DNA of 64,000 bases from contig NC_080702.1 in assembly GCF_030445035.2 (NCBI RefSeq), forward strand, positions 12,594,029-12,658,028. Direction: 5' to 3'. Under the pieces are notes generated by a model that was not told the origin of the DNA, made no database searches, and saw only the letters and a list, made by a program, of their open reading frames with translations. The translations under genes were made by a program, and so were the position numbers. This document shows, piece after piece, positions 19,290-61,324 of the stretch; the stretch's first letter is position 1, and the number at the start of each line of letters is the position of its first letter. This stretch comes from Dasypus novemcinctus (lineage: Eukaryota > Chordata > Mammalia > Cingulata > Dasypodidae).

Positions 19290-20960
19290 TCAAATTGAAA
19301 TCCCTGTAGAACATATGGTAACTGCTGTCAGTATATGTGGATGATGGAGGCAGAACTGTTTTAGAATTTGTCAAGAACATACTGCCACTTAGGTGAGATA
19401 CAAAATGAACACGAAGTTTAATGGGACTCTGTCACTGCAGCATAGCATGTATTTTAGTACCACTGGCAGACTGACTATGGCCAGTTACTTTTGGTGGCCA
19501 TTAGCTACAAATCTACACCTTTGATTCTTTTTTTTTTTAAGATTTATTTATTTCTCTCCTTCCCCACCCCTCCCACCCCAGGTGTCTGTTCTCTGTGTCT
19601 ATTTGCTGCGTGTTCTTTGTTCACTTCTGTTGTCAGCGGCACCGGAATCTGTGTTTCTTTTTGTTGCAACAGCTCTCCGTGTGTGCGGCACCATTCCTGG
19701 GCAGGCTGAACTTCCTTTCACGCTGGGCGGCTCTCCTTATGGGGTGCACTCCTTGTGCGTGGGGCTCCCTTACGCAGGGGACCTCCCTGTACGCATCAGC
19801 ACTGCGCATGGGTCAGCTGCACACAGGTCAAGGAGGCCCGGGATTTGAACCGTGGACCTCCCATGTGGTAGATGGACGCCCTAACCACTGGGCCAAGTCC
19901 GCTTCCCGTCCTTTGATTCTTATTTTATTCCTGCTCTTTGCCATCCTTCTTTCATCGTGGAAGACTGTACTGAGGCAGCTCACACTGTACTTGTTAAACC
20001 TCCAACTCTAAATACACGCACATCTTGTCCTAACCAGAATCCTCCCAGTATTTCATGAGTAACACACTACTGTCTTTGAGTTATTCTGTGTCCTTCTAGC
20101 TTGCCAGGAGCAGCTCACTGTGGTGCTTCCAAATGACCCAAAATGTGAAGAAGCCAGAACTAAAGCAAGGTGACATTGCTTTTCATTGTCTGAGGTGACC
20201 CAGTAATGTGTTTTGTTTTTTTGGTTTCTTCCTTTTTCAATTAATTTCATGTAAGGACATCATCTAATCATTTACATTATAGATGATATATATAATTTTC
20301 TCAGGGCAGAGATCACTGACTGGGAGTCTCTTCCAACTGATAAATGAATTAAGGGGCACCCATGAACGGCAGCAGCAAGTTATAAACTATAAGGCAGGGG
20401 GCCTGTCACACAGCTGTATTTCTTTTTCTCCTTGGATTAAGGATTAAGAATTTTATAATCACCAACCAAAATGGAATTGAGAGACAGATGTCTAGGAAAG
20501 GCTTGTGAATTCCAGATGGATCTGTAATGTTTGATTATGGGGTCGTGACTCGACCAGTTTCCCATGTAGCTTCCTCATTGTGGCAAGCAAGCAAAAGTCC
20601 TGTTCAAACAGGGTACAGCATGATCCTCATAGAGTTTTCTCCAGTTGCAGGTGACACAAGGAACAAATGAAAATGGAACATTAACTAGAATCACTGATGT
20701 AGAAAAATCTGGATGATAGGAAAACCAGGGCATTCTTGTTAAGTCTGTCTAGAATGGAAACATGGTTCCAGATCTTGGTGAGAATAAGGACTGGGGGTGT
20801 GGTTAAAGAAAATGATTTTCCAGGGAAGGACTATGGGAATGTACTACATTCCTGAAAGCAGTAGCTGTGTTCCCTTTATGTGTCATTGATTTGTGTGTAC
20901 AGTTATTAGGAAGTGTGTATGCATGACTCCACGTGATGTGATTTGGAGAAGGGAGTTTGT
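19290..20960. repeat. Duplicated block, copy 1 (5' part)
   Basis: This block is paralogous in the same orientation to 34410-35390 plus 43885-44040. Shared landmarks are AGAACATATGGTA, TTAGGTGAGATACA, ATTTTAGTACCA, AGCAGCAAGTTATAAACTA against AGCAGCAGATTATAAACTA, and ACAGCATGATCC. A DAS SINE inserted only in this copy. No exon is evident. Similarity by eye suggests an old duplication. Confidence 0.55.
19529..19909 (-). mobile_element. DAS SINE, minus strand
   Basis: Reverse-oriented full-length DAS SINE: a T-rich tail at the left, the DAS body, and the head reading GGGAAGCGGACTTGGCCC on the minus strand. An 11-bp target duplication CCTTTGATTCT lies at 19518-19528 and 19910-19920. Confidence 0.9.
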
Positions 20961-35790: not shown

Positions 35791-36200
35791 TGAGGCACAG
35801 CGTCAGGCAACAGTCTGGCTTGCCTCTCTGGCCAGCTCTGGCGCGAAGTAGGTACCGCTTCCGCTAGGGTAAGGGTGGCTGGTACGGGCGCTCCGCCCTT
35901 GGCCTGGTACGGGCGTCACCGCCCTCAGCCCGCCCTTCGGCCCTCCCACCGCACGTCATCTCATGCCCCCCCCTGCTTGCCGAGCCGACCGCCTAGCCTT
36001 ATAAGGGCATGTAGCTCGCCCGGACCAATAGGGAGCTGGGGCCAGCAACGGCCCTCCCCGCACCAGCCCAGTATATCAGTGCCTGCAGTTCCGCAATAAA
36101 CCAGATCTGCGCCATCAGCCAGTCTCCGTGGTCTGTCTCCTCTAGCCGGGCCGCGTCGTCCTCGCCTCCTGCGACCCCACGAAGCCCCGCAGAGGCTTCA
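35791..36200 (+). mobile_element. 5' LTR of provirus
   Basis: It starts TGAGGCACAG and ends GAGGCTTCA, 410 bp. There is a TTATAAG TATA-like box at 35999-36005, AATAAA at 36095-36100, and two GGTACGGGCG motifs in U3. The 3' LTR, minus its insertion, differs by 8 substitutions and one C-run indel. Confidence 0.92.
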
Positions 36201-36202
36201 AC

Positions 36203-36220
36203 TGGCGCCCAACGTGGGGC
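36203..36220 (+). other. Primer binding site, tRNA-Lys1,2
   Basis: TGGCGCCCAACGTGGGGC lies 2 nt after the 5' LTR. It is the 18-nt complement of the 3' end of tRNA-Lys1,2, the primer used by several betaretroviruses. Confidence 0.92.
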
Positions 36221-36242
36221 ACGAGCACCCGCTGCCCGTGAG

Positions 36243-36250
36243 CAGGTAAG
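36243..36250 (+). promoter_or_regulatory. Predicted major splice donor
   Basis: CAG|GTAAG (cut after 36245) matches the donor consensus and lies between the primer site and gag, the expected place for the subgenomic env donor. Confidence 0.65.
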
Positions 36251-36269
36251 GACCAATTCCTCCTCCGCT

Positions 36270-38127
36270 ATGGGAGCCTCTTTTCTCCAGCCGGCAGGCC
36301 CCGCAGTTTCGGGCGCTTGCTGGCCTACTGGCCTGCCACCAATGTAAGGTTTCGGCCAAGCAGCTCCAGACTTATTGGGATTTACTGATCCCCTTCAATC
36401 CCTGGCTTTCCACCGCCAATCTATGGGACCCTGACACCTACCGCATGCTGGTTGATCGTGTTTCCGCCACTATGGAACATGAAAACAAGCACTTCCCCCC
36501 CGGCCTTATTCCCACGCTTATTGCCATCCGCTCTTGCTTGCTCGGCGCCGCTCCGCCTGTCACAGCCTATAACTGTGCCTGGCCAGACCCCCTCGAACAG
36601 GGCAATTCCGACCCCACGGATAATGATTCTGCCTCCTTAGTTTTTCAGCTTAATAACATCCTGGAGGAGGACGAGGCCACCCCGGGTCCACCGATGCCCT
36701 CTAAAATCCAAAATGATCTTGCCCCAAAAGGCCACCTTGCCGTCAAACAAAATGGCGATTCCGCCGCCGCCGGGCGCCTCCCTAGCGCTAACAAACAAGA
36801 TGGCGAACTTCCTCCTTCTTCCTCGGCTAACACACGGAAGTCTCTGTACCCGGAGCTTTCTCCTTCGCCATCCCCTGACAAACAGGAAGAGGTCAACTTG
36901 AAAGAGGAACCATTACCTCACTCGCCCCCAACTGGAGCGGTTGCCTCGGGGGCGGAAATGAGAGTGGGGTTACACAACCCCTCTCTAAGCAATACCACAA
37001 CACCACCTAGCGGTAGCCCTATGTTAACCCTGTCCCTCCCTAGCACCTTCTCCCCTGCTTTAAACCCAACACTCGCTTTTAGTCCAAGCACCCTGCACCC
37101 GCTTACTCTTCCTCCGGTGGCCCCTCCCCCCGCGCCGCTTACCTCCCATCAAGCCATGCCCCCGCCTCAACAACCCCCTCAGCTATACCCGGTCAACCTA
37201 ATGCCTACGCCTCAGCGCCCCCTCCCCTGGTACCCGTACAGTCCTTCGGAGGTGAAGCGCCTGCGTGAGGCCGTCCGGGAGGATGGACTAGGCAGCCCTT
37301 ACGCCCAACAACTCCTTAACGACATGTCGCTTAACTTAAACCTCCCCTATGACTGGCAAGCCATTGCCCGAGCCATCCTTACTCCCGGCCAGTTTGTTAA
37401 TTGGCGAGCCCACTTTCAAGATCAGGCTGAGCAGCAGGTGAGGGCCAACCACCCCAATGGCATTACTTTTCCCCTGAATGCCTTCCTCGGCTTACCACCC
37501 TATAACGCCCCAGCAGCCTTCGCTCAGGCCACTGCTGTTTTCTGGGATCAGCTCCGGAGCATAGCTATGCGTGCTTTTGGCAATTGCTCCACTATAAAAA
37601 CTGAAACCTTCACCAAGCTTGTTCAGGGCAAGGAGGAGGATTTTTCTGCCTTTGTTTCAAGAGTTCAAGAGGCGTGTGCCTGCAAAGTAACCAATGAGCA
37701 GGCCCAAGCGGCTCTTGCGCGGGAGCTCATCTTAGAGGGGGCAAACCCTGTTTGCAAGCAAGCCATTGCTTCCAAACGGGAGGGTAGCCTCCATGAGTGG
37801 ATTTTGGCCTGCAAAGACCTAGACCAAACCTCTCATACCCTTGCCACCTCTTTCGCTTCTGCCCTCGCTTTGGCCATGGGACCTTGTTTCCGATGTAACC
37901 AGGAAGGGCACTTTGCCTGCGACTGCCCCAACTCAAAGGGAGCCCCGCCTCCCAAAAAGCCACCGGGGCCAAACACACCTTCTACCCCATGTCCAAAGCG
38001 TAAGAGAGGCTATCATTGGGCCAGAGATTGTCACTCACGGTCAAACATAAACGGCAAGCCTTTAAACTTCAAAGGGGGCGAGCCTCAGCCCCGCCCCCAA
38101 GAGGCACACCACCTGCCAAAACCCTAA
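36270..38127 (+). CDS. gag: Gag polyprotein (matrix, capsid, nucleocapsid), start frame-shifted
   Basis: Structural polyprotein that assembles the particle. The only ATG at a sensible place (36270, encoding an MGAS start suited to N-myristoylation) is in a different frame from the rest and stops at 36345-36347. The main frame, open from before 36300 to the stop at 38125-38127, has its first ATG at 36445. Thus a 1-base change lies within about the first 10 codons. Matrix (36300-36560) is followed by a proline/serine-rich linker, then capsid from about 37190. The major homology region is LVQGKEEDFSAFVSRVQEA at 37618-37674. Nucleocapsid knuckle 1 (CFRCNQEGHFACDC, 37885-37926) is an intact CCHC. 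In knuckle 2 (37990-38031) the second Cys is replaced by Arg (CGT, 37999-38001). No clear PPxY or PTAP late motif was seen in the linker. Confidence 0.9.
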
Positions 38128-38582
38128 TGTGGTCCGTCCCTATAACTGGGGATAAGCCTACTATGGCCCTAAGGATTAACAACCACTGGTACCATGGCAC
38201 CCTAGATTCTGGGGCTGAAATTTCTTGCTTCCCTGCCTGCTACGCCAAACATTGGGAAGTACAGCGCGGACCGCCCGTTCAGGGGGCCACCGGGGACTCA
38301 GTCTCTCAACGAGCACGCTATCCCGTCACATGGGAAGATGAAGAAAGTCATATAGGTACCTTCCAGCCGCTCTTCCTGTCTACCCTCACCACTATATTAT
38401 GGGGGCGAGACATTCTAGAGCAAAGTGGAGTCGTCTTAACCACGGTTCCCCCCCAACAGTTTGCGCCACTGCTCAGCTTGCTCCACCCGACCCCACCCCT
38501 CTGCAATGGGACACAGAGGAGCCTATTTGGGTCGAGCAGTGGCCCCTACCATCCCACAAACTTACCACCCTGCACACCCTAG
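38016..38582 (+). CDS. pro: Retroviral aspartic protease (pro)
   Basis: Aspartic protease that cleaves the polyproteins, made as Gag-Pro by -1 frameshifting at 38061-38067. The open frame runs 38016-38582 and overlaps gag by 112 nt; the ATG at 38016 is not needed for translation. The catalytic motif is LDSGAEI, with Asp at 38205-38207. A glycine-containing flap-like region follows near 38290, then LWGRDIL at 38397-38417, the conserved helix that supports the active site. DSG instead of DTG is known in some retroviral proteases. The C-terminal part (38420-38582) overlaps pol and has no dUTPase signature, unlike typical betaretroviruses. No stop or frameshift interrupts the catalytic core. Confidence 0.88.
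38061..38105 (+). promoter_or_regulatory. gag-pro -1 ribosomal frameshift signal with pseudoknot
   Basis: The slippery heptamer T TTA AAC is at 38061-38067, in register with gag codons. After a 6-nt spacer, stem 1 is GGGGGCG (38074-38080) paired with CGCCCCC (38092-38098), perfect over 7 bp. Loop bases GCCTC (38082-38086) can pair with GAGGC (38101-38105), giving an H-type pseudoknot. It lies 58 nt before the gag stop, and the -1 product enters the protease frame, so position, register and structure agree. Confidence 0.9.
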
Positions 38583-41129
38583 TCCAAGAACAACTTGAGG
38601 CCGGCCATCTTGAGCCTTCCACTAGCCCCTATAATTCGCCTGTCTTTATTATTCACAAAAAATCCACAGGCAAATACCGGCTTTTACATGACCTCAGGGA
38701 AATCAATAAACACATTCTTCCCATGGGGTCCAGCCAACCTGGCCTTCCTCACCCTACAGCAGTCCCCCATCGCTTTCATGTCGCTACGATCGACATCAAG
38801 GACTGTTTCTTTTCTATCCCACTGCATCCACAAGATCGACACAAGTTTGCCTTTACAGTCCCGCTCCCCAACCATCAGGGAGTCGCTTATTGGTAACAAT
38901 GGAAAGTGCTCCCGCAAGGCATGAGGAATAGCCCTACCATCTGTCAAAATTTCGTCACCCTGGCGGTTGCCCCTCTCCGGCACTGAGCCTGTATCATCCA
39001 TTATATGGACGATATCCTCCTTGCCCACAAGAACCCCCACCAGCTGCAACTCGTTCTCACACAGCTCAAACTAAACCTGTCACTTATAGGCCTCCACATT
39101 AAAGAGGAGAAGGTGCAGCTTAGCCCTCCTTTTACCTTCCTCGGGTTACGGGTTGCGTGCCATGTTGAGCCCATCGCCCCCCAACTGAATGTCCCCGCTC
39201 AGCTCTCATTAACTGAGTTGCAACAGCTATGCGGGAATATCATTTGGGTTAGATCAGTGCTTCCCATCACTACGGCACAGCTCAACCCTCTCTTTGAGTT
39301 GTTACAAACATCCAGCAACCCACCCGAGGCAATTACTAAGAAAATCACCATCACACCAGAGGTGCGAAAAGCCATACAGGCAGTCCTGCGCTCTCCAGCG
39401 CTATGACCCCACTCAACCAATTTTGGCATTTGCTCTCGCCACTCCAGGAACTCCCACGGGAGTTCTGTGGCAGCAGGGACCCCTGTTGTGGCTACACCCA
39501 TCCAAGAGCAAGCTCCAAAAGATATGCCCAGCTATTCGCCTTTGGATCTCTCTTGCTGCAGACCTTAACACCCTCTGTCTGCATACATACCATGTTCCCC
39601 CCTCTACCATCGTCTGGCCACTCAATGCCAAGCAAACCACCCACCTCATCCAAACCAATGAGGATATGCAAGTCTTGCTTGAGGACTTTAGGGGAGAGTT
39701 CGACAATCACCTCCCCTGCCACAAATTACTGCAGGGTCTGGTCCAACTCCCCTTTGCCGACCCATTCCATCCCTTCCCCTCTTCAACACCACTGCCCCAT
39801 TCTACCACCATTTTCACAGACGCCTCCAAAACCAAATATGTGTTTGTAGTGTACCAACCTGGGCACCCCCATCCCCGTACGTTCACCTATACTAACCAAT
39901 TCTCTGTGCAGACGGGTGAGCTACTGGCCGTGTATGCCGCCCTCAGGGCCTTCCCGGCCGAGGCAGTCAATATCTTCACTGACAGCCAGTATACACTCCA
40001 AGCCTGTCGTGTTCTGGCCTTTTCCACCTTCTTCCCTAAGGACACCCCCATCGACACGGCCCTGGCCTCGTTAAAGGAATTGCTCGAGCGCCGTACAGCT
40101 CCATGGTACGTGGCACACCTGAGAAGCCACTCAGACTTGCCCGGGTCCCTAACTCGGGGCAATGCCTTAGCCGACCAAGTAGTCTCCACCTATGCGCTCA
40201 CCACCATAGGGAACCTTATCAATCAAGCAAAGATACTTCACTCTAAATTTCATTTTTCGGCCGCCTCTCTTAAACATCTACTGCCGGACCTTTCTATAGA
40301 CACATGTGAACATTTGGTGCGCGCCTGCAAAACCTGTGCCCCTTTCCTGCCTCTAGGGCCCCTGCAGCCACAGGGGGTAAACCCCCGTGGCCTTAAACCA
40401 AATTCTCGATGGCAGCTAGATGTCACCCATGTACCGTCCTTCAGACGCCTCAAATATGTGCATGTGGCTCTCGACACCTTCTCTCACCTCTGCTATGCTG
40501 TGTCCCTCGCAGGAGAAACAGCCAAGCACTGCATTAAGGCCCTAAGACAAGCCATCCTTTTCATGGGAGTTCCATGGGATCTAAAAACCGACAATGGCCC
40601 CGCGTACCGCAGCTCCTCCTTTGCTGCCTTCCTCAGTCTCTACAACATCACTCACCATTTCGGGATCCCATACAACCCCCAGGGCCAGGCCATAGTGGAA
40701 CGCACCCACCGCCACTTAAAAATTCAAATACAAAAGGAGAGAGACTTGCACCCACACAGCCAACCAAGTGACATCATAACAGCTTGTCTTATTCACATGA
40801 ACCTCCTCTCCTTTGATAAGAATGGTCTCTCCCCCCTTCACAAACATTGGGGCCCCTCCTACGCACCAACGGTCGCCCCAATGGTTTATTGGAGAGACCC
40901 AGAAACACATACTTGGGAAGGGCCCAGCCCCCTTCTCACCCAAGGGAGAGGGTTCTCTTGTGTCTTTCCAGAAAATGCCTCGCAGCCAATCTGGATCCCA
41001 GGCCGAAACATCAAGCCAGCCACCGCAGCAGCGACGGATGACGAGGAGGGAATGTCGCCAGCTTCGCAGCCTCACCTACCGGATGACTCGCCTCGTCCTC
41101 GACGAGCCGGCCACCGAGCCCAACACTGA
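38399..41129 (+). pseudogene. pol: Pol: reverse transcriptase, RNase H and integrase, with two stops and a frame change
   Basis: Pol is in the -1 frame relative to pro. RT begins near 38500 ([23 protein letters not shown]) and has the polymerase motif with IDIKDCFF near 38792. Catalytic YMDD is at 39002-39013. In-frame stops TAA (38894-38896) and TGA (38984-38986) lie before YMDD. Near 39380-39406 the frame changes, and RNase H and integrase continue uninterrupted to 41129. RNase H carboxylates are visible at 39819 (D), 39918 (E) and 39981 (D). The integrase HHCC finger has His at 40239 and 40251 and Cys at 40326 and 40335. The catalytic triad is D 40419, D 40590, E 40698, with D-X35-E spacing. 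The C-terminal end (GRGFSCVF) is class II-like. The enzyme is inactive as encoded. Confidence 0.93.
40952..40972 (+). promoter_or_regulatory. Predicted env splice acceptor
   Basis: A pyrimidine-rich run (TTCTCTTGTGTCTTTCCAG) ends in AG at 40970-40971, only 3 nt before the env ATG. A second candidate acceptor ends at 41245 (CTTGCCGCAACAG). Confidence 0.65.
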
Positions 41130-42786
41130 GCTTATCCAGCTCCTGCGCCTGTACCACCGCGCCCGAGCTGTCCACCCACCACCAAATAACGCCCCCACCT
41201 CGCTTGTTCCCCTTCTCATCCTTCTTCTCTCCCTTGCCGCAACAGGAGAAGCCGCTAAGCCGCGCAGCCAGTACGAGCTTTGGGCCGCTTTACAAGCCCC
41301 GCCCGGATTCCTCTTTCTGACCCGCTCTAGCCCCCTCTTCCCCGCCGTCTACCACACCTCCTGTGACCTCGGCCTCCCATGCAACCCTATGTTCCAACCT
41401 TCCTCCTCCCACCTCAACGTTTCCGTTTCACCACCCCCCCTGGGACACCATTTTCCTCTCCCTCAGTAATCAGTCTGACTCGTCCTTCCCCGACACCCTC
41501 TACTTCTCCCTCGCAATATCTGCGAAGTTTGGTACAATCGCACCTCCGCCTCCGCACGCACTTCCGGCATAGCCTACCGACTAGATGGCCTCTGGCCACC
41601 CACCTCCAACGCCACCCGATCCAAACAGTTTGCAGCTTATGTGCAACGCCCCCCCGTCCCCAATTGCAGTCCTAAAGGCTCCCCCCATGCTGCGCCCTTA
41701 CAGTCTTTTCGCTGGCGCGACTGCACACACCCCAACCCTACCGCCACAGGCCTCTTCACCCCCATGGCCTTGCTTCCTAATGAAACAAGTACCACTATCT
41801 TCGTCGACCCGCTCCGGGTCACACCCGCATACTCCTTCTCTACCTTGTCCCTCTGTGGGCCCTCTTCCTGCCTCAACCTGCGACCCTTCGTCTGTCTCTC
41901 CAACTGCTCCCTCTCCAATGGCACTCTAATGGTCAACGGCTCAACGTCAACCTTCGCCAGTCGTTCCACTCAAATTATCCACACCTTTGCCTACGTTAAG
42001 CCCCCATTCACCTTTCTCCTCTGCAGAACTCTAAGCTTCCCCTCCGCGGCCTGCTTTCTCTCCAACTTCTGGAATAACTCCTTCCCATACGCTTTCCTGC
42101 TTCTCCAGCCACCCCTCGTATGGGTCCCCATCAACGCCTCTGATTCGGTCCCTCCCCAACTCTCCCCCTGCCCCTGTCCCCGTCAGATCTTGCACCCCGC
42201 AGGGTTCAGCGCGACTTCGGACTCTCCGCCGCCATTGCCGTCGCCTTCATCGCTTCCTTAGCAGCCGCCACTACCGCCACCGTTGCCCTAACGCAAACCT
42301 CCCTCACTGCCGGAGTCGTCAACAACATCTTAGCGACAACCCAAGCAGCCCTCGGCACTCAAATGGACATCAACCTTCTCCACCACCACGCCATCTTAAA
42401 CCTCCAGCAACAAATAGACTTGCTTGCCCTGGACGTTGATACCCTTTATTCCCTTGCCAACACCCTGTGTGACGGGAGCTACCAGTTCTCCCAGCTCTGC
42501 ATCACCCCCGTCCCTGTCAACCGCTCCACCCACCGGTCCACCCTCAGAAACCTAATACTATCTTCTTATAATGCCTCCTTCCACAACCACACCCTGGCGC
42601 TTCAGGCCTACAGAGAGAGTTATTCAGACCTAGCTATTCCCCAGCTTGCCTCATCTGTCCTCGGGGAGCTGCCTGTTCATCTCCGCCAGCCTGGCATTCT
42701 ATGGCATTATCGGTGCCGGGCTCTTGCTCGTCCTCCTCCTCCTCTGTTGTGTCCGTGGCGCCCTGCGGCATGCGCGGCAAGAGTGA
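40975..42786 (+). pseudogene. env: Class II Env (SU and TM) with several frame changes
   Basis: Envelope glycoprotein gene overlapping the pol end by 155 nt. Frame 1 opens at 40975 with a leader of about 93 aa: an Arg-rich segment (residues 20-39), LIQLLRL, then the hydrophobic core LVPLLILLLSLA. SU continues to TAA at 41467-41469. Reading then moves to frame 2 (to about 41540), back to frame 1 (to about 42180), and to frame 0 for the cleavage region. A furin-like RVQR site is at 42201-42212, followed by a hydrophobic Ala-rich fusion peptide. TM shows C-X9-C (CDGSYQFSQLC) rather than the gamma C-X6-CC. The anchor (GAGLLLVLLLLLCC) is in frame 1 and ends at the TGA at 42784-42786. Many N-glycosylation sequons are present. 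At least four frame changes make it non-functional. Confidence 0.87.
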
Positions 42787-42819
42787 CGGCTTATTGCCGC
42801 TGCCTCTCTGGTTCTTAGT

Positions 42820-42836
42820 AAAAACGAAGGGGGAGA
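42820..42836 (+). other. Polypurine tract of provirus
   Basis: AAAAACGAAGGGGGAGA immediately precedes the 3' LTR. One C interrupts the purines. Confidence 0.85.
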
Positions 42837-43878
42837 TGAGGCACAGCGTCAGGCAACAGTCTGGCTTGCCTCTCTGGCCAGCTCTGGCGCGAAGTATGTG
42901 GGATAGCCTCCTCCTCAGTAGGGGCCAGCCCTGGCGGAAGGTAGACGCGTAACCTGGAGCCAGTGGTCAAGGGAAGGGCTGGTACGGGCGCAAGCCCTCA
43001 GCCCGCCCAGGCCCACTACGAGGCGGCCAGTACGGATGCCACGTCCTCGGGCCGTTGGTATGCGGCGCTCCAAAGCCCGCCCAGTCACCTAGGCTACACC
43101 CACTGTTCCTGCCAAAAGGCAACATCCCGACGGCTCCCCCACTCCCCCTTCCCCCTCCTCTTCCCGCCTCCCCTCGCTGTGACGCCATTCCCGCCCCTTC
43201 CCGTACCCTCCCTCCTAGCATTTCCGTGTTGCTCCTTACCAATCCTCATCGAAAGTCTCCCCAGCACGCCTTATACGGCATCCCAGCAAGAACTCTGCCC
43301 GCCCCTCCGCCACAGCCCTATATAATCTCTGTACATTCCCCGATAAACGGCTCTGTTACAGCTCCACAAGGGTGTCTCGTCTCCTTCGTCCCCGCCGCCC
43401 TCCACACCTTGCACGCCTCCGCCGGAGACTCGGCCAAGTCTTCCGCCTCACCCCCGCCTCCGGGAAGAGTCGCCTGGCCCACGGCCGCCCGTCCCTCGGC
43501 CAGGCTCAGATCGCCGCTGCCACAAAGTAGGTACCGCTTCCGCTAGGGTAAGGGTGGCTGGTACGGGCGCTCCGCCCTCGGCCTGGTACGGGCGTCACTA
43601 CCCTCAGCCTGCCCTTCGGCCCTCCCACCGCACGTCATCTCATGCCCCCCCTGCTTGCCGAGCCGACCGCCTAGCCTTATAAGGGCATGTAGCCCGCCCT
43701 GACCAATAGGGAGCTGGGGCCAGCAACGGCCCTCCCCGCACCAGCCCAGTATATCAGTGCCTGCAGTTCCGCAATAAACCAGATCTGCGCCATCAGCCAG
43801 TCTCCGTGGTCTGTCTTCTCTAGCGGGGCCGCGTCGTCCTCGCCTCCTGCGACCCCACGAAGCCCCGCAGAGGCTTCA
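42837..43878 (+). mobile_element. 3' LTR of provirus, split by a nested solo LTR
   Basis: It starts TGAGGCACAG, identical to the 5' LTR for the first 60 bp, is interrupted at 42897, resumes at 43530 and ends GAGGCTTCA at 43878. Without the insert and one target copy it is 409 bp. AATAAA is at 43773-43778. Confidence 0.92.
42897..43524 (+). mobile_element. Solo LTR nested in the provirus 3' LTR
   Basis: A 628-bp insert begins TGTGGGATAG and ends GCTGCCACA. It is flanked by the 5-bp target duplication AAGTA (42892-42896 and 43525-43529); the uninterrupted 5' LTR has AAGTA once at 35846-35850. A TATA box is at about 43317-43327 (CTATATAATC). The usual AATAAA is replaced by GATAAA near 43342. 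It contains GGCTGGTACGGGCGC and CCCTCAGCCCGCCC, also present in the host LTR, so the two families are probably related. Confidence 0.93.
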
Positions 43879-47475: not shown

Positions 47476-47667
47476 TACATTTGATGTATTTTTCCTCCAA
47501 CCCATACTATTTTTTATATAACATTTATGTAATCTAAGCATCTTCAAAAAATAATAAAAACAATAAACTCACCAATTAAAAGACACATATTGGCAGAATG
47601 TATTTTAAAAAAATACTTCAAATGCGGCGCCTTGCTTGGTCGGTGGCGGTGGGGTCTGGCTGCGGAT

Positions 47668-47801
47668 GAGGGGTCGGTCCGGCTTTGGACGAGGGGTTGG
47701 TCCGGCTTGGGACGAGGGGTTGGTCCAGCTTGGGACGAGGGGTCGGTCCGGCAGCAGACGAGGGGTCGGTCCGGCAGCAGACGAGGGGTCGGTCTCACAG
47801 G
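47668..47801 (-). repeat. 23-bp minisatellite in LTR R/U5
   Basis: Five full units of 23 bp (plus-strand GAGGGGTCGGTCCGGC core) at 47668, 47691, 47714, 47737 and 47760, and a partial sixth. Confidence 0.85.
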
Positions 47802-47818
47802 GGTTGCGCGGTTCAGCT

Positions 47819-60702: not shown

Positions 60703-61324
60703 ATGGCACTGGAAGAGCACAAATTTCAAAGTACATGCAGAAAAATTGGAGATCTTATGGGAATTAAAGGTGCAATAAATGAAATTTTAAAAATACTGGA
60801 GTCATATAACAGATTTGAGGAGGCAGAAAAAAGGACTGGTGAGCTGGAAGAAATAGCTTCTCAAAGCAAAAGTAAAAAAGAACAGTGGAAGAAAGAATGG
60901 AAAAAATTGAACAAGGTCTCAGGGAACTAAATGACAACAAAAGATGTGGAAACATATGTGTAAAAGGTGTCCAACAAGGAGAAAAGGGGAAAAGGGTAAT
61001 AGGAATGTTTTAAGAAATAACGGTAGAAAATTTCACAACCCTATTAAAGGACATGGATATCCATATCTAAGAAGCACAACGCACTCCCTTATGTATAATT
61101 TCAAAGAGTACAACCCCAAGACATATTAATTATAATGTCAAATACCAAAGACAGAGAATTCTGAGCAAGAGAGAACCAATGCATAACATATAAGGGACAC
61201 CCAATAAGATTAACTACAGAGTTCCCATGGAGGCAAGAGAGAGTGGTGAGTGTTACAGGTCTTTTAGAATTTGTTCAGTAGGTCTTCTGGTTCTTGCTGG
61301 AAGACCCTTACTTTCCCCATATTT

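What the first reader, a model, noticed from the sequence alone, without database searches (positions are those of the whole stretch)
38061..38105. Complete -1 frameshift cassette: TTTAAAC, 6-nt spacer and H-type pseudoknot
Seen directly: the heptamer is in gag register, stem 1 (7 bp, 38074-38080/38092-38098) is perfect, and loop 38082-38086 is perfectly complementary to 38101-38105. Known: betaretroviruses and deltaretroviruses use such signals for Gag-Pro. Inference: this cassette survived intact although pol and env decayed, so it is a usable natural example of a compact, GC-rich pseudoknot.
Basis: partly seen in the sequence, partly recalled or inferred. Interest (0 to 1): 0.75.

Follow-up and report, generated by a model that had tools for sequence, protein, structure and literature searches.

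The report
Retroviral gag-pro frameshift pseudoknot, stem re-drawn
A fossil retrovirus carries an RNA signal that should make ribosomes slip back one base so that its protease can be made; it is of a known (mouse mammary tumour virus) kind, but sister copies in the same genome show that one stem was first drawn in the wrong register.

Summary
The cassette is real. TTTAAAC (38061-38067) is in gag register, 64 nt before the gag stop, and the -1 frame leads into a retroviral protease domain. Another register, GGGGC 38075-38079 / GCCCC 38088-38092, is fully paired in 177 of 193, and stem 2 (as drawn) in 185 of 193, with compensatory changes at three stem-2 pairs. The result is an MMTV-type pseudoknot: 7-nt spacer, 5-bp S1, 2-nt L1, 5-bp S2, one wedge A (38087), 8-nt loop ending AA. 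The window's copy is atypical: G38080 completes a competing 7-bp hairpin, and gag, pro and RT frames are damaged. New member of a known kind; slippage was not measured. A by-product may be more interesting: pol lies in a second -1 frame, and 92 of the 95 copies whose pro-pol junction was located have no standard slippery heptamer in the overlap; the one candidate shared by 10 of 10 chosen family representatives is C CCC CAA at the end of pro.

The parts
35791..43878 (+). provirus between two LTRs (5' LTR ends 36200, its left end only approximate; 3' LTR about 42837-43878; the 5' LTR lacks about 0.6 kb of the 3' one)
   Evidence: direct repeats; LTR alignment 35838-36200 / 43517-43878, 11 mismatches in 363
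36203..36220 (+). putative primer binding site just after the 5' LTR
   Evidence: sequence; that it is of a tRNA-Lys type is recalled, no call
36250..38127 (+). gag body reading frame (stop to stop), stop TAA 38125-38127
   Evidence: Pfam Gag_p24, Gag_p24_C, zf-CCHC_5
38061..38067 (+). slippery heptamer T TTA AAC in gag register
   Evidence: intact in 190 of 193 places
38068..38074 (+). spacer, 7 nt
   Evidence: 7 nt in 186 of 193 places, 6 nt in 4, heptamer broken in 3
38075..38079 (+). stem 1, 5' arm GGGGC
   Evidence: fully paired with 38088-38092 in 177 of 193
38080..38081 (+). loop 1, GA here (AG 87, AA 81, GG 21 of 193)
38082..38086 (+). stem 2, 5' arm GCCTC
   Evidence: fully paired with 38101-38105 in 185 of 193; compensatory changes
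38087..38087 (+). single unpaired A between the stems (wedge position)
   Evidence: A in 191 of 193; role by comparison with MMTV
38088..38092 (+). stem 1, 3' arm GCCCC
38093..38100 (+). loop crossing stem 1 (L2 in Huang's naming), 8 nt, ends AA
   Evidence: variable at 38093-38096 and 38098; A38099 and A38100 in 193 of 193
38101..38105 (+). stem 2, 3' arm GAGGC
   Evidence: hairpin -13.9 kcal/mol in this copy; fully paired in 3 of 193
38004..38582 (+). -1 (pro) open frame; protease domain about 38151-38438; overlap with gag 38004-38127
   Evidence: Pfam RVP E 1.1e-10
38448..38459 (+). pro-pol junction: seven C, AA, then CAG here (TAG in 7 of the 7 closest sisters that differ: L003-L008 have TAG; L001, the duplicate, has CAG)
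38342..38896 (+). RT reading frame, -1 relative to pro
   Evidence: Pfam RVT_1

Best explanation
A programmed -1 ribosomal frameshift signal at the gag-pro junction of a betaretrovirus-like (class II) endogenous retrovirus, of the MMTV structural type. Ribosomes translating gag meet the pseudoknot 7 nt downstream while TTA and AAC are in the P and A sites; a fraction slip back one base (onto TTT and AAA) and read on into pro, giving Gag-Pro; the rest end at TAA 38125. The knot is S1 38075-38079/38088-38092, S2 38082-38086/38101-38105, wedge A 38087, loop 38093-38100. Shown: sequence, frames, protease domain, conservation, and covariation of S2. Inferred: folding, slippage and its rate. In this copy a competing hairpin (through G38080) and a gag start in another frame make present-day use doubtful (inferred).
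For: Frames and domains. In 193 places of the same genome (the window's own and its segmental duplicate included) S1 is fully paired in 177, S2 in 185, both in 170; in the 141 that flank or protease searches bring in, 125, 137, 122. S2 pairs change together: 38083-38104 C-G 166 / T-A 24; 38085-38102 T-A 158 / C-G 34; 38082-38105 G-C 129 / G-T 57 / A-T 6. Paired cells 98% (S1) and 99% (S2), against 39-60% and 36-66% when partners are slid by 1-3 inside the block. Of 190 copies with an intact heptamer, 146 reach D[ST]GA in the -1 frame without a stop, and 177 have a gag-frame stop within 120 nt. Nested-fold z of the 60 nt after the heptamer is -3.2. Geometry (spacer 7, S1 5, S2 5, L1 2, L2 8, L3 1) is next to MMTV (7, 5, 7, 1, 8, 1). 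The two adenines conserved here, wedge and loop end, are the kinds whose addition turned an inactive knot into an active one in work reviewed in PMC5009743 (passage).
Against: No frameshifting was measured. S1 shows no double change: its pairs are invariant or altered on one side (16 of 193 not fully paired), so S1 rests on conservation, not covariation. On a quick tree of a protease piece the double changes at 38085-38102 and 38083-38104 are about one event each and 38082-38105 went by steps through G-U; independent-pair sign tests had 1-3 pairs and cannot reach significance. Of 190 copies with an intact heptamer 38 show no D[ST]GA in the -1 frame, 6 only after a stop, and 13 have no gag-frame stop within 120 nt. 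Nested folding of this copy gives the 7-bp hairpin as minimum (-17.0 for 38068-38105, the lowest of the 14 commonest cassettes); no pseudoknot program was run. The whole cassette lies in a two-frame coding overlap, which also constrains it.
Confidence: 0.9

Rival explanations
1. One reading: 7-bp S1 38074-38080/38092-38098, 6-nt spacer, 2-nt loop to S2.
For: Perfect complementarity in this copy; stronger stacking (-19.0 against -13.3 kcal/mol).
Confidence: 0.03
2. A plain hairpin, not a knot, is the stimulator, at least in the window's copy, because G38080 stabilises the 7-bp hairpin.
For: Nested minimum of this copy is that hairpin, -17.0, against -14.3 in the commonest close sister with A; GA in loop 1 occurs in 2 of 193, the window and its duplicate.
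Against: S2 is conserved with compensatory changes across the lineage, which a hairpin would not need. Stem sum for the knot is -24.5 before loop costs.
Confidence: 0.12
3. Chance complementarity, conserved only because gag and pro both code here.
For: The cassette lies in a two-frame overlap, and chance cassettes occur about 0.12 times per 64-kb strand.
Against: Within the same overlap spacer and loop vary while stems, wedge A and loop-end AA hold, and S2 pairs change together.
Confidence: 0.04

Closest known systems
MMTV gag-pro frameshift pseudoknot
   Same: 7-nt spacer, 5-bp S1, short L1, single wedge A, 8-nt loop (Huang 2013 Table 1 and introduction passages; Atkins 2016 passages)
   Different: slippery site UUUAAAC instead of AAAAAAC; S2 5 bp instead of 7; L1 2 nt instead of 1
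SRV-1 / MPMV / JSRV / HERV-K10 / IAP gag-pro pseudoknots
   Same: compact H-type knot 7-8 nt after the heptamer at gag-pro
   Different: GGGAAAC or AAAAAAC heptamers, S1 6-7 bp, no intervening base in Huang's table; Atkins et al. do mention a wedge A for SRV-1
UUUAAAC signals of coronaviruses, toroviruses and arteriviruses
   Same: the heptamer
   Different: S1 11-14 bp in all UUUAAAC rows seen but SHFV and PEDV (5), and mostly longer loops; unrelated viruses

Membership tests
MMTV-type gag-pro -1 frameshift signal | X XXY YYZ heptamer in the gag frame before the gag stop, protease in the -1 frame | tested here: met
   in sisters 146 of 190 without a stop
MMTV-type gag-pro -1 frameshift signal | compact H-type knot 7 nt downstream with 5-bp S1, wedge A, about 8-nt loop ending in A | tested here: met
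   as sequence: both stems full in 170 of 193, spacer 7 in 186 of 193; compared with Table 1 of PMC3835772. The fold itself was not probed
MMTV-type gag-pro -1 frameshift signal | stem pairs supported by compensatory change | tested here: inconclusive
   met for S2 (three pairs) on few independent events; none for S1
MMTV-type gag-pro -1 frameshift signal | measured -1 frameshifting | not testable with these tools
   needs a reporter
genus Betaretrovirus | -1/-1 gag-pro-pol layout | tested here: met
   window. Sisters, pro to RT: -1 in 57 of 71 placed, 0 in 8, +1 in 6; 36 of 107 not placed
genus Betaretrovirus | dUTPase in pro, N-terminal of the protease | tested here: not met
   Pfam finds RVP only in the pro frame, and 69 nt separate the heptamer from the start of the protease stretch used. 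PMC3621094 states that all betaretroviruses encode it (passage); PMC1224870 reports that many chicken beta-like ERVs lack it (passage). Hence betaretrovirus-like, not filed as a member
genus Betaretrovirus | closest capsid, protease and integrase relatives betaretroviral | tested here: met
   among solved structures only: Gag 8c9m then HERV-K capsids, protease 3sqf, integrase 7usf, 3jca; that 3sqf is MPMV and 7usf/3jca MMTV is recalled
genus Betaretrovirus | G-patch at the end of pro | not tested
   no motif search was run

The most novel reading that the evidence does not exclude
This ERV lineage reaches pol by a non-canonical second -1 shift: peptidyl-tRNA-Pro slips on CCC in C CCC CAA UAR at the very end of pro, without an X XXY YYZ heptamer. 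In 10 of 10 family representatives that I chose (window with CAG for UAG) it is the one in-frame site of the last 63 nt of pro, shared by all, in which the P-site codon re-pairs perfectly; its A-site codon has one mismatch. Of 104 copies examined the junction was located in 95; an in-frame canonical heptamer lies in the -1-open overlap of 3 of these 95, and the core C5AATA[AG] is in 90 and C5AACAG in 2. Against: in 9 of 104 the core was not found (an A interrupts the run in some), in 15 of 95 the UAR is in another frame than the gag-pro shift gives, the site may be held by two-frame coding alone, and no strong downstream fold was seen (7 tested, z -2.2 to +0.7).
Probability: 0.35. Interest if true: 0.65.

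Novelty: new member of a known kind. Interest (0 to 1): 0.4.

Why it matters
It gives 193 places with 61 distinct natural versions of a compact MMTV-type knot in one genome, which can separate what stems, wedge A and loop-end adenines contribute. It also shows that a stem drawn by eye in a GC-rich stretch can be in the wrong register, which sister copies reveal. The pro-pol junction of the same lineage would be a new type of retroviral shift site if confirmed.

Tried and rejected
Rfam at gathering score gave no frameshift element in the window, nor anything at E up to 1 in 37950-38650. Phage collection: no match. IMG/VR with the protease piece: one match of 24 residues, judged false from 401 bases of its sequence, so no relative outside this genome was obtained. 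The host species was not identified; armadillo was a guess from genome size, followed only by paper searches, and is not claimed. Nested RNA folding cannot represent the knot. Canonical slippery sites in the pro-pol overlap: 3 of 95. Paper searches on C-run pro-pol shifting, pro-pol slippery sites, CCC CAA shifting, UUUAAAC gag-pro in ERVs and Dasypus ERVs: by the listings nothing described this lineage or its pro-pol site; only titles and abstract starts were seen and only open-licence papers are held, so this is no proof of absence. Papers of which more was seen: PMC3835772 (outline, Discussion, passages), PMC5009743, PMC1224870, PMC3621094 (passages only).

Full report
What was checked. The window lies in a 3.61-Gb genome (G000, contig C45), species not named. 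The heptamer TTTAAAC is at 38061-38067 with TTA AAC as gag codons. Gag runs 36250-38127 (Pfam capsid and zinc-finger hits), and the -1 frame 38004-38582 carries a retroviral protease (RVP, E 1.1e-10); RT lies in a further -1 frame. So the observation sits where a gag-pro shift site must be.

Which knot. Two registers of stem 1 are possible in the G/C run. The other has GGGGC 38075-38079 with GCCCC 38088-38092, a lone A38087 between the stems and an 8-nt loop 38093-38100. I collected 193 places in the same genome. 52 were fetched through a pattern that covers 38061-38084 (biased towards the 5' arm of stem 1; some of these also turn up). 141 are places that DNA upstream or downstream of the cassette, or the protease, brings in. 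Fetching. All searches return capped lists (for instance 150 scored of 3206 candidates), so this is a sample. The 193 include the window itself and its segmental duplicate.

Result of the count. Second register fully paired: 177 of 193 (125 of 141). Stem 2: 185 of 193 (137 of 141). Spacer 7 nt in 186, 6 in 4, heptamer broken in 3. Stem 2 changes in step at 38083-38104 (C-G or T-A), 38085-38102 (T-A or C-G) and 38082-38105 (G-C, G-T, A-T). Stem 1 has no double change. A38087 is kept in 191, A38099 and A38100 in 193, while 38093-38096 and 38098 vary. On a quick tree built from a 185-base protease piece the double changes are about one event each for two of the pairs and stepwise for the third; sign tests on independent pairs cannot reach significance with so few. 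The covariation is thus visible but rests on few events.

Comparison with the literature. Huang et al. 2013 (PMC3835772: outline, Discussion and passages incl. most of Table 1 seen) list MMTV as spacer 7, S1 5, S2 7, L1 1, L2 8, L3 1, the one betaretrovirus there with an intervening base; the present knot is 7, 5, 5, 2, 8, 1. In the part of that table seen, UUUAAAC stands in arterivirus, coronavirus and torovirus rows, and the betaretroviral gag-pro rows show GGGAAAC or AAAAAAC (the passage was cut after the BLV row). Atkins et al. 2016 (PMC5009743, passages) describe the wedge A as important for function, and an inactive knot with an 8-nt loop made active by a junction A and an A at the loop's 3' end; both positions are conserved here.

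The window's own copy. LTRs differ at 11 of 363 aligned positions. A copy 1.92 Mb away on the same contig is 99.7% identical over 3024 bases of the provirus and 99.6% over 2201 and 1701 bases at its two sides, which reach beyond the LTRs; hence a segmental duplication and not a second insertion. GA in loop 1 occurs in 2 of 193, these two; G38080 completes the 7-bp hairpin, which is the nested minimum here (-17.0; the 14 commonest cassettes range from -10.8 to -17.0, the closest common sister with A has -14.3). The first ATG after the leader (36270, followed by GGAGCC) is in another frame than the gag body, and pro and RT frames are altered as well, so present use of the cassette in this copy is doubtful (inference).

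Chance. In 60 Markov-1 random sequences of the window's length the cassette type occurs 0.117 times per strand; observed 1 on +, 1 on -. The window holds more heptamers on + (473) than the random sets (276 on average), so the true expectation is somewhat higher.

Results that do not fit or limit the reading. Of 190 copies with an intact heptamer 38 show no D[ST]GA in the -1 frame, 6 only after a stop, and 13 have no gag-frame stop within 120 nt; one family has a repeat and C runs of variable length after the knot. Frameshifting was not measured and the knot not probed.

Beyond the finding. Pol lies -1 to pro in 57 of 71 copies in which both frames were placed, 0 in 8, +1 in 6; 36 of 107 were not placed. 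The end of pro reads CCC CAA followed by UAR in 9 of 10 chosen family representatives and by CAG in the window. Of 104 copies the junction was located in 95; 3 of these have an in-frame X XXY YYZ with Y = A or U in the overlap open in the -1 frame, and in 15 the UAR is not in the frame given by the gag-pro shift. In one family the C run varies in length or is interrupted, and some copies have pro and RT in one frame. How pol is reached is thus open; slippage of the proline tRNA on C CCC just before the stop is my best guess and is not shown.

Verdict. The finding is a genuine gag-pro frameshift signal by sequence evidence, with stem 1 and spacer to be corrected; it works like, and in the sequence features tested is, an MMTV-type signal. 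The virus is betaretrovirus-like but lacks the pro dUTPase, so it is not filed as a Betaretrovirus.

Noticed in passing
38448-38459 and sister loci L003-L008, L105-L215: Pro-pol junction mostly without a canonical slippery heptamer; C CCC CAA UAR at the end of pro with pol in the -1 frame.
   Followed up: partly
part of L050-L101, downstream of the cassette: One family (TTCCAAG spacer, GGGGT 3' arm) has in many copies a tandem repeat of the 3' part of the knot and C runs of variable length; several of its copies have no gag-frame stop in the stretch held or no D[ST]GA in the -1 frame.
   Followed up: no
L146, L167-L189: C run at the pro-pol junction varies in length or is interrupted between copies, and some copies have pro and RT in one frame.
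   Followed up: partly
G000:C45:10704793-10716793 (L001, L216, L217): Segmental duplication of the provirus with flanks, 99.6-99.7% identical, 1.92 Mb from the window.
   Followed up: yes
35791-36200 against 42837-43878: The 5' LTR lacks about 0.6 kb present in the 3' LTR; the two matching pieces overlap by 16 bases at the break.
   Followed up: no
about 38008-38034: The second zinc knuckle of gag lacks one of its cysteines in this copy (the expected pattern is recalled).
   Followed up: no
61248-61309: U7 snRNA-like sequence, score 61.3 against a gathering score of 34.
   Followed up: no
19829-19904, minus strand: tRNA-Gly-like sequence (ARAGORN; Rfam 29.3 bits at a cut-off of 29).
   Followed up: no
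47630-47813: Tandem array with a 23-base period.
   Followed up: no
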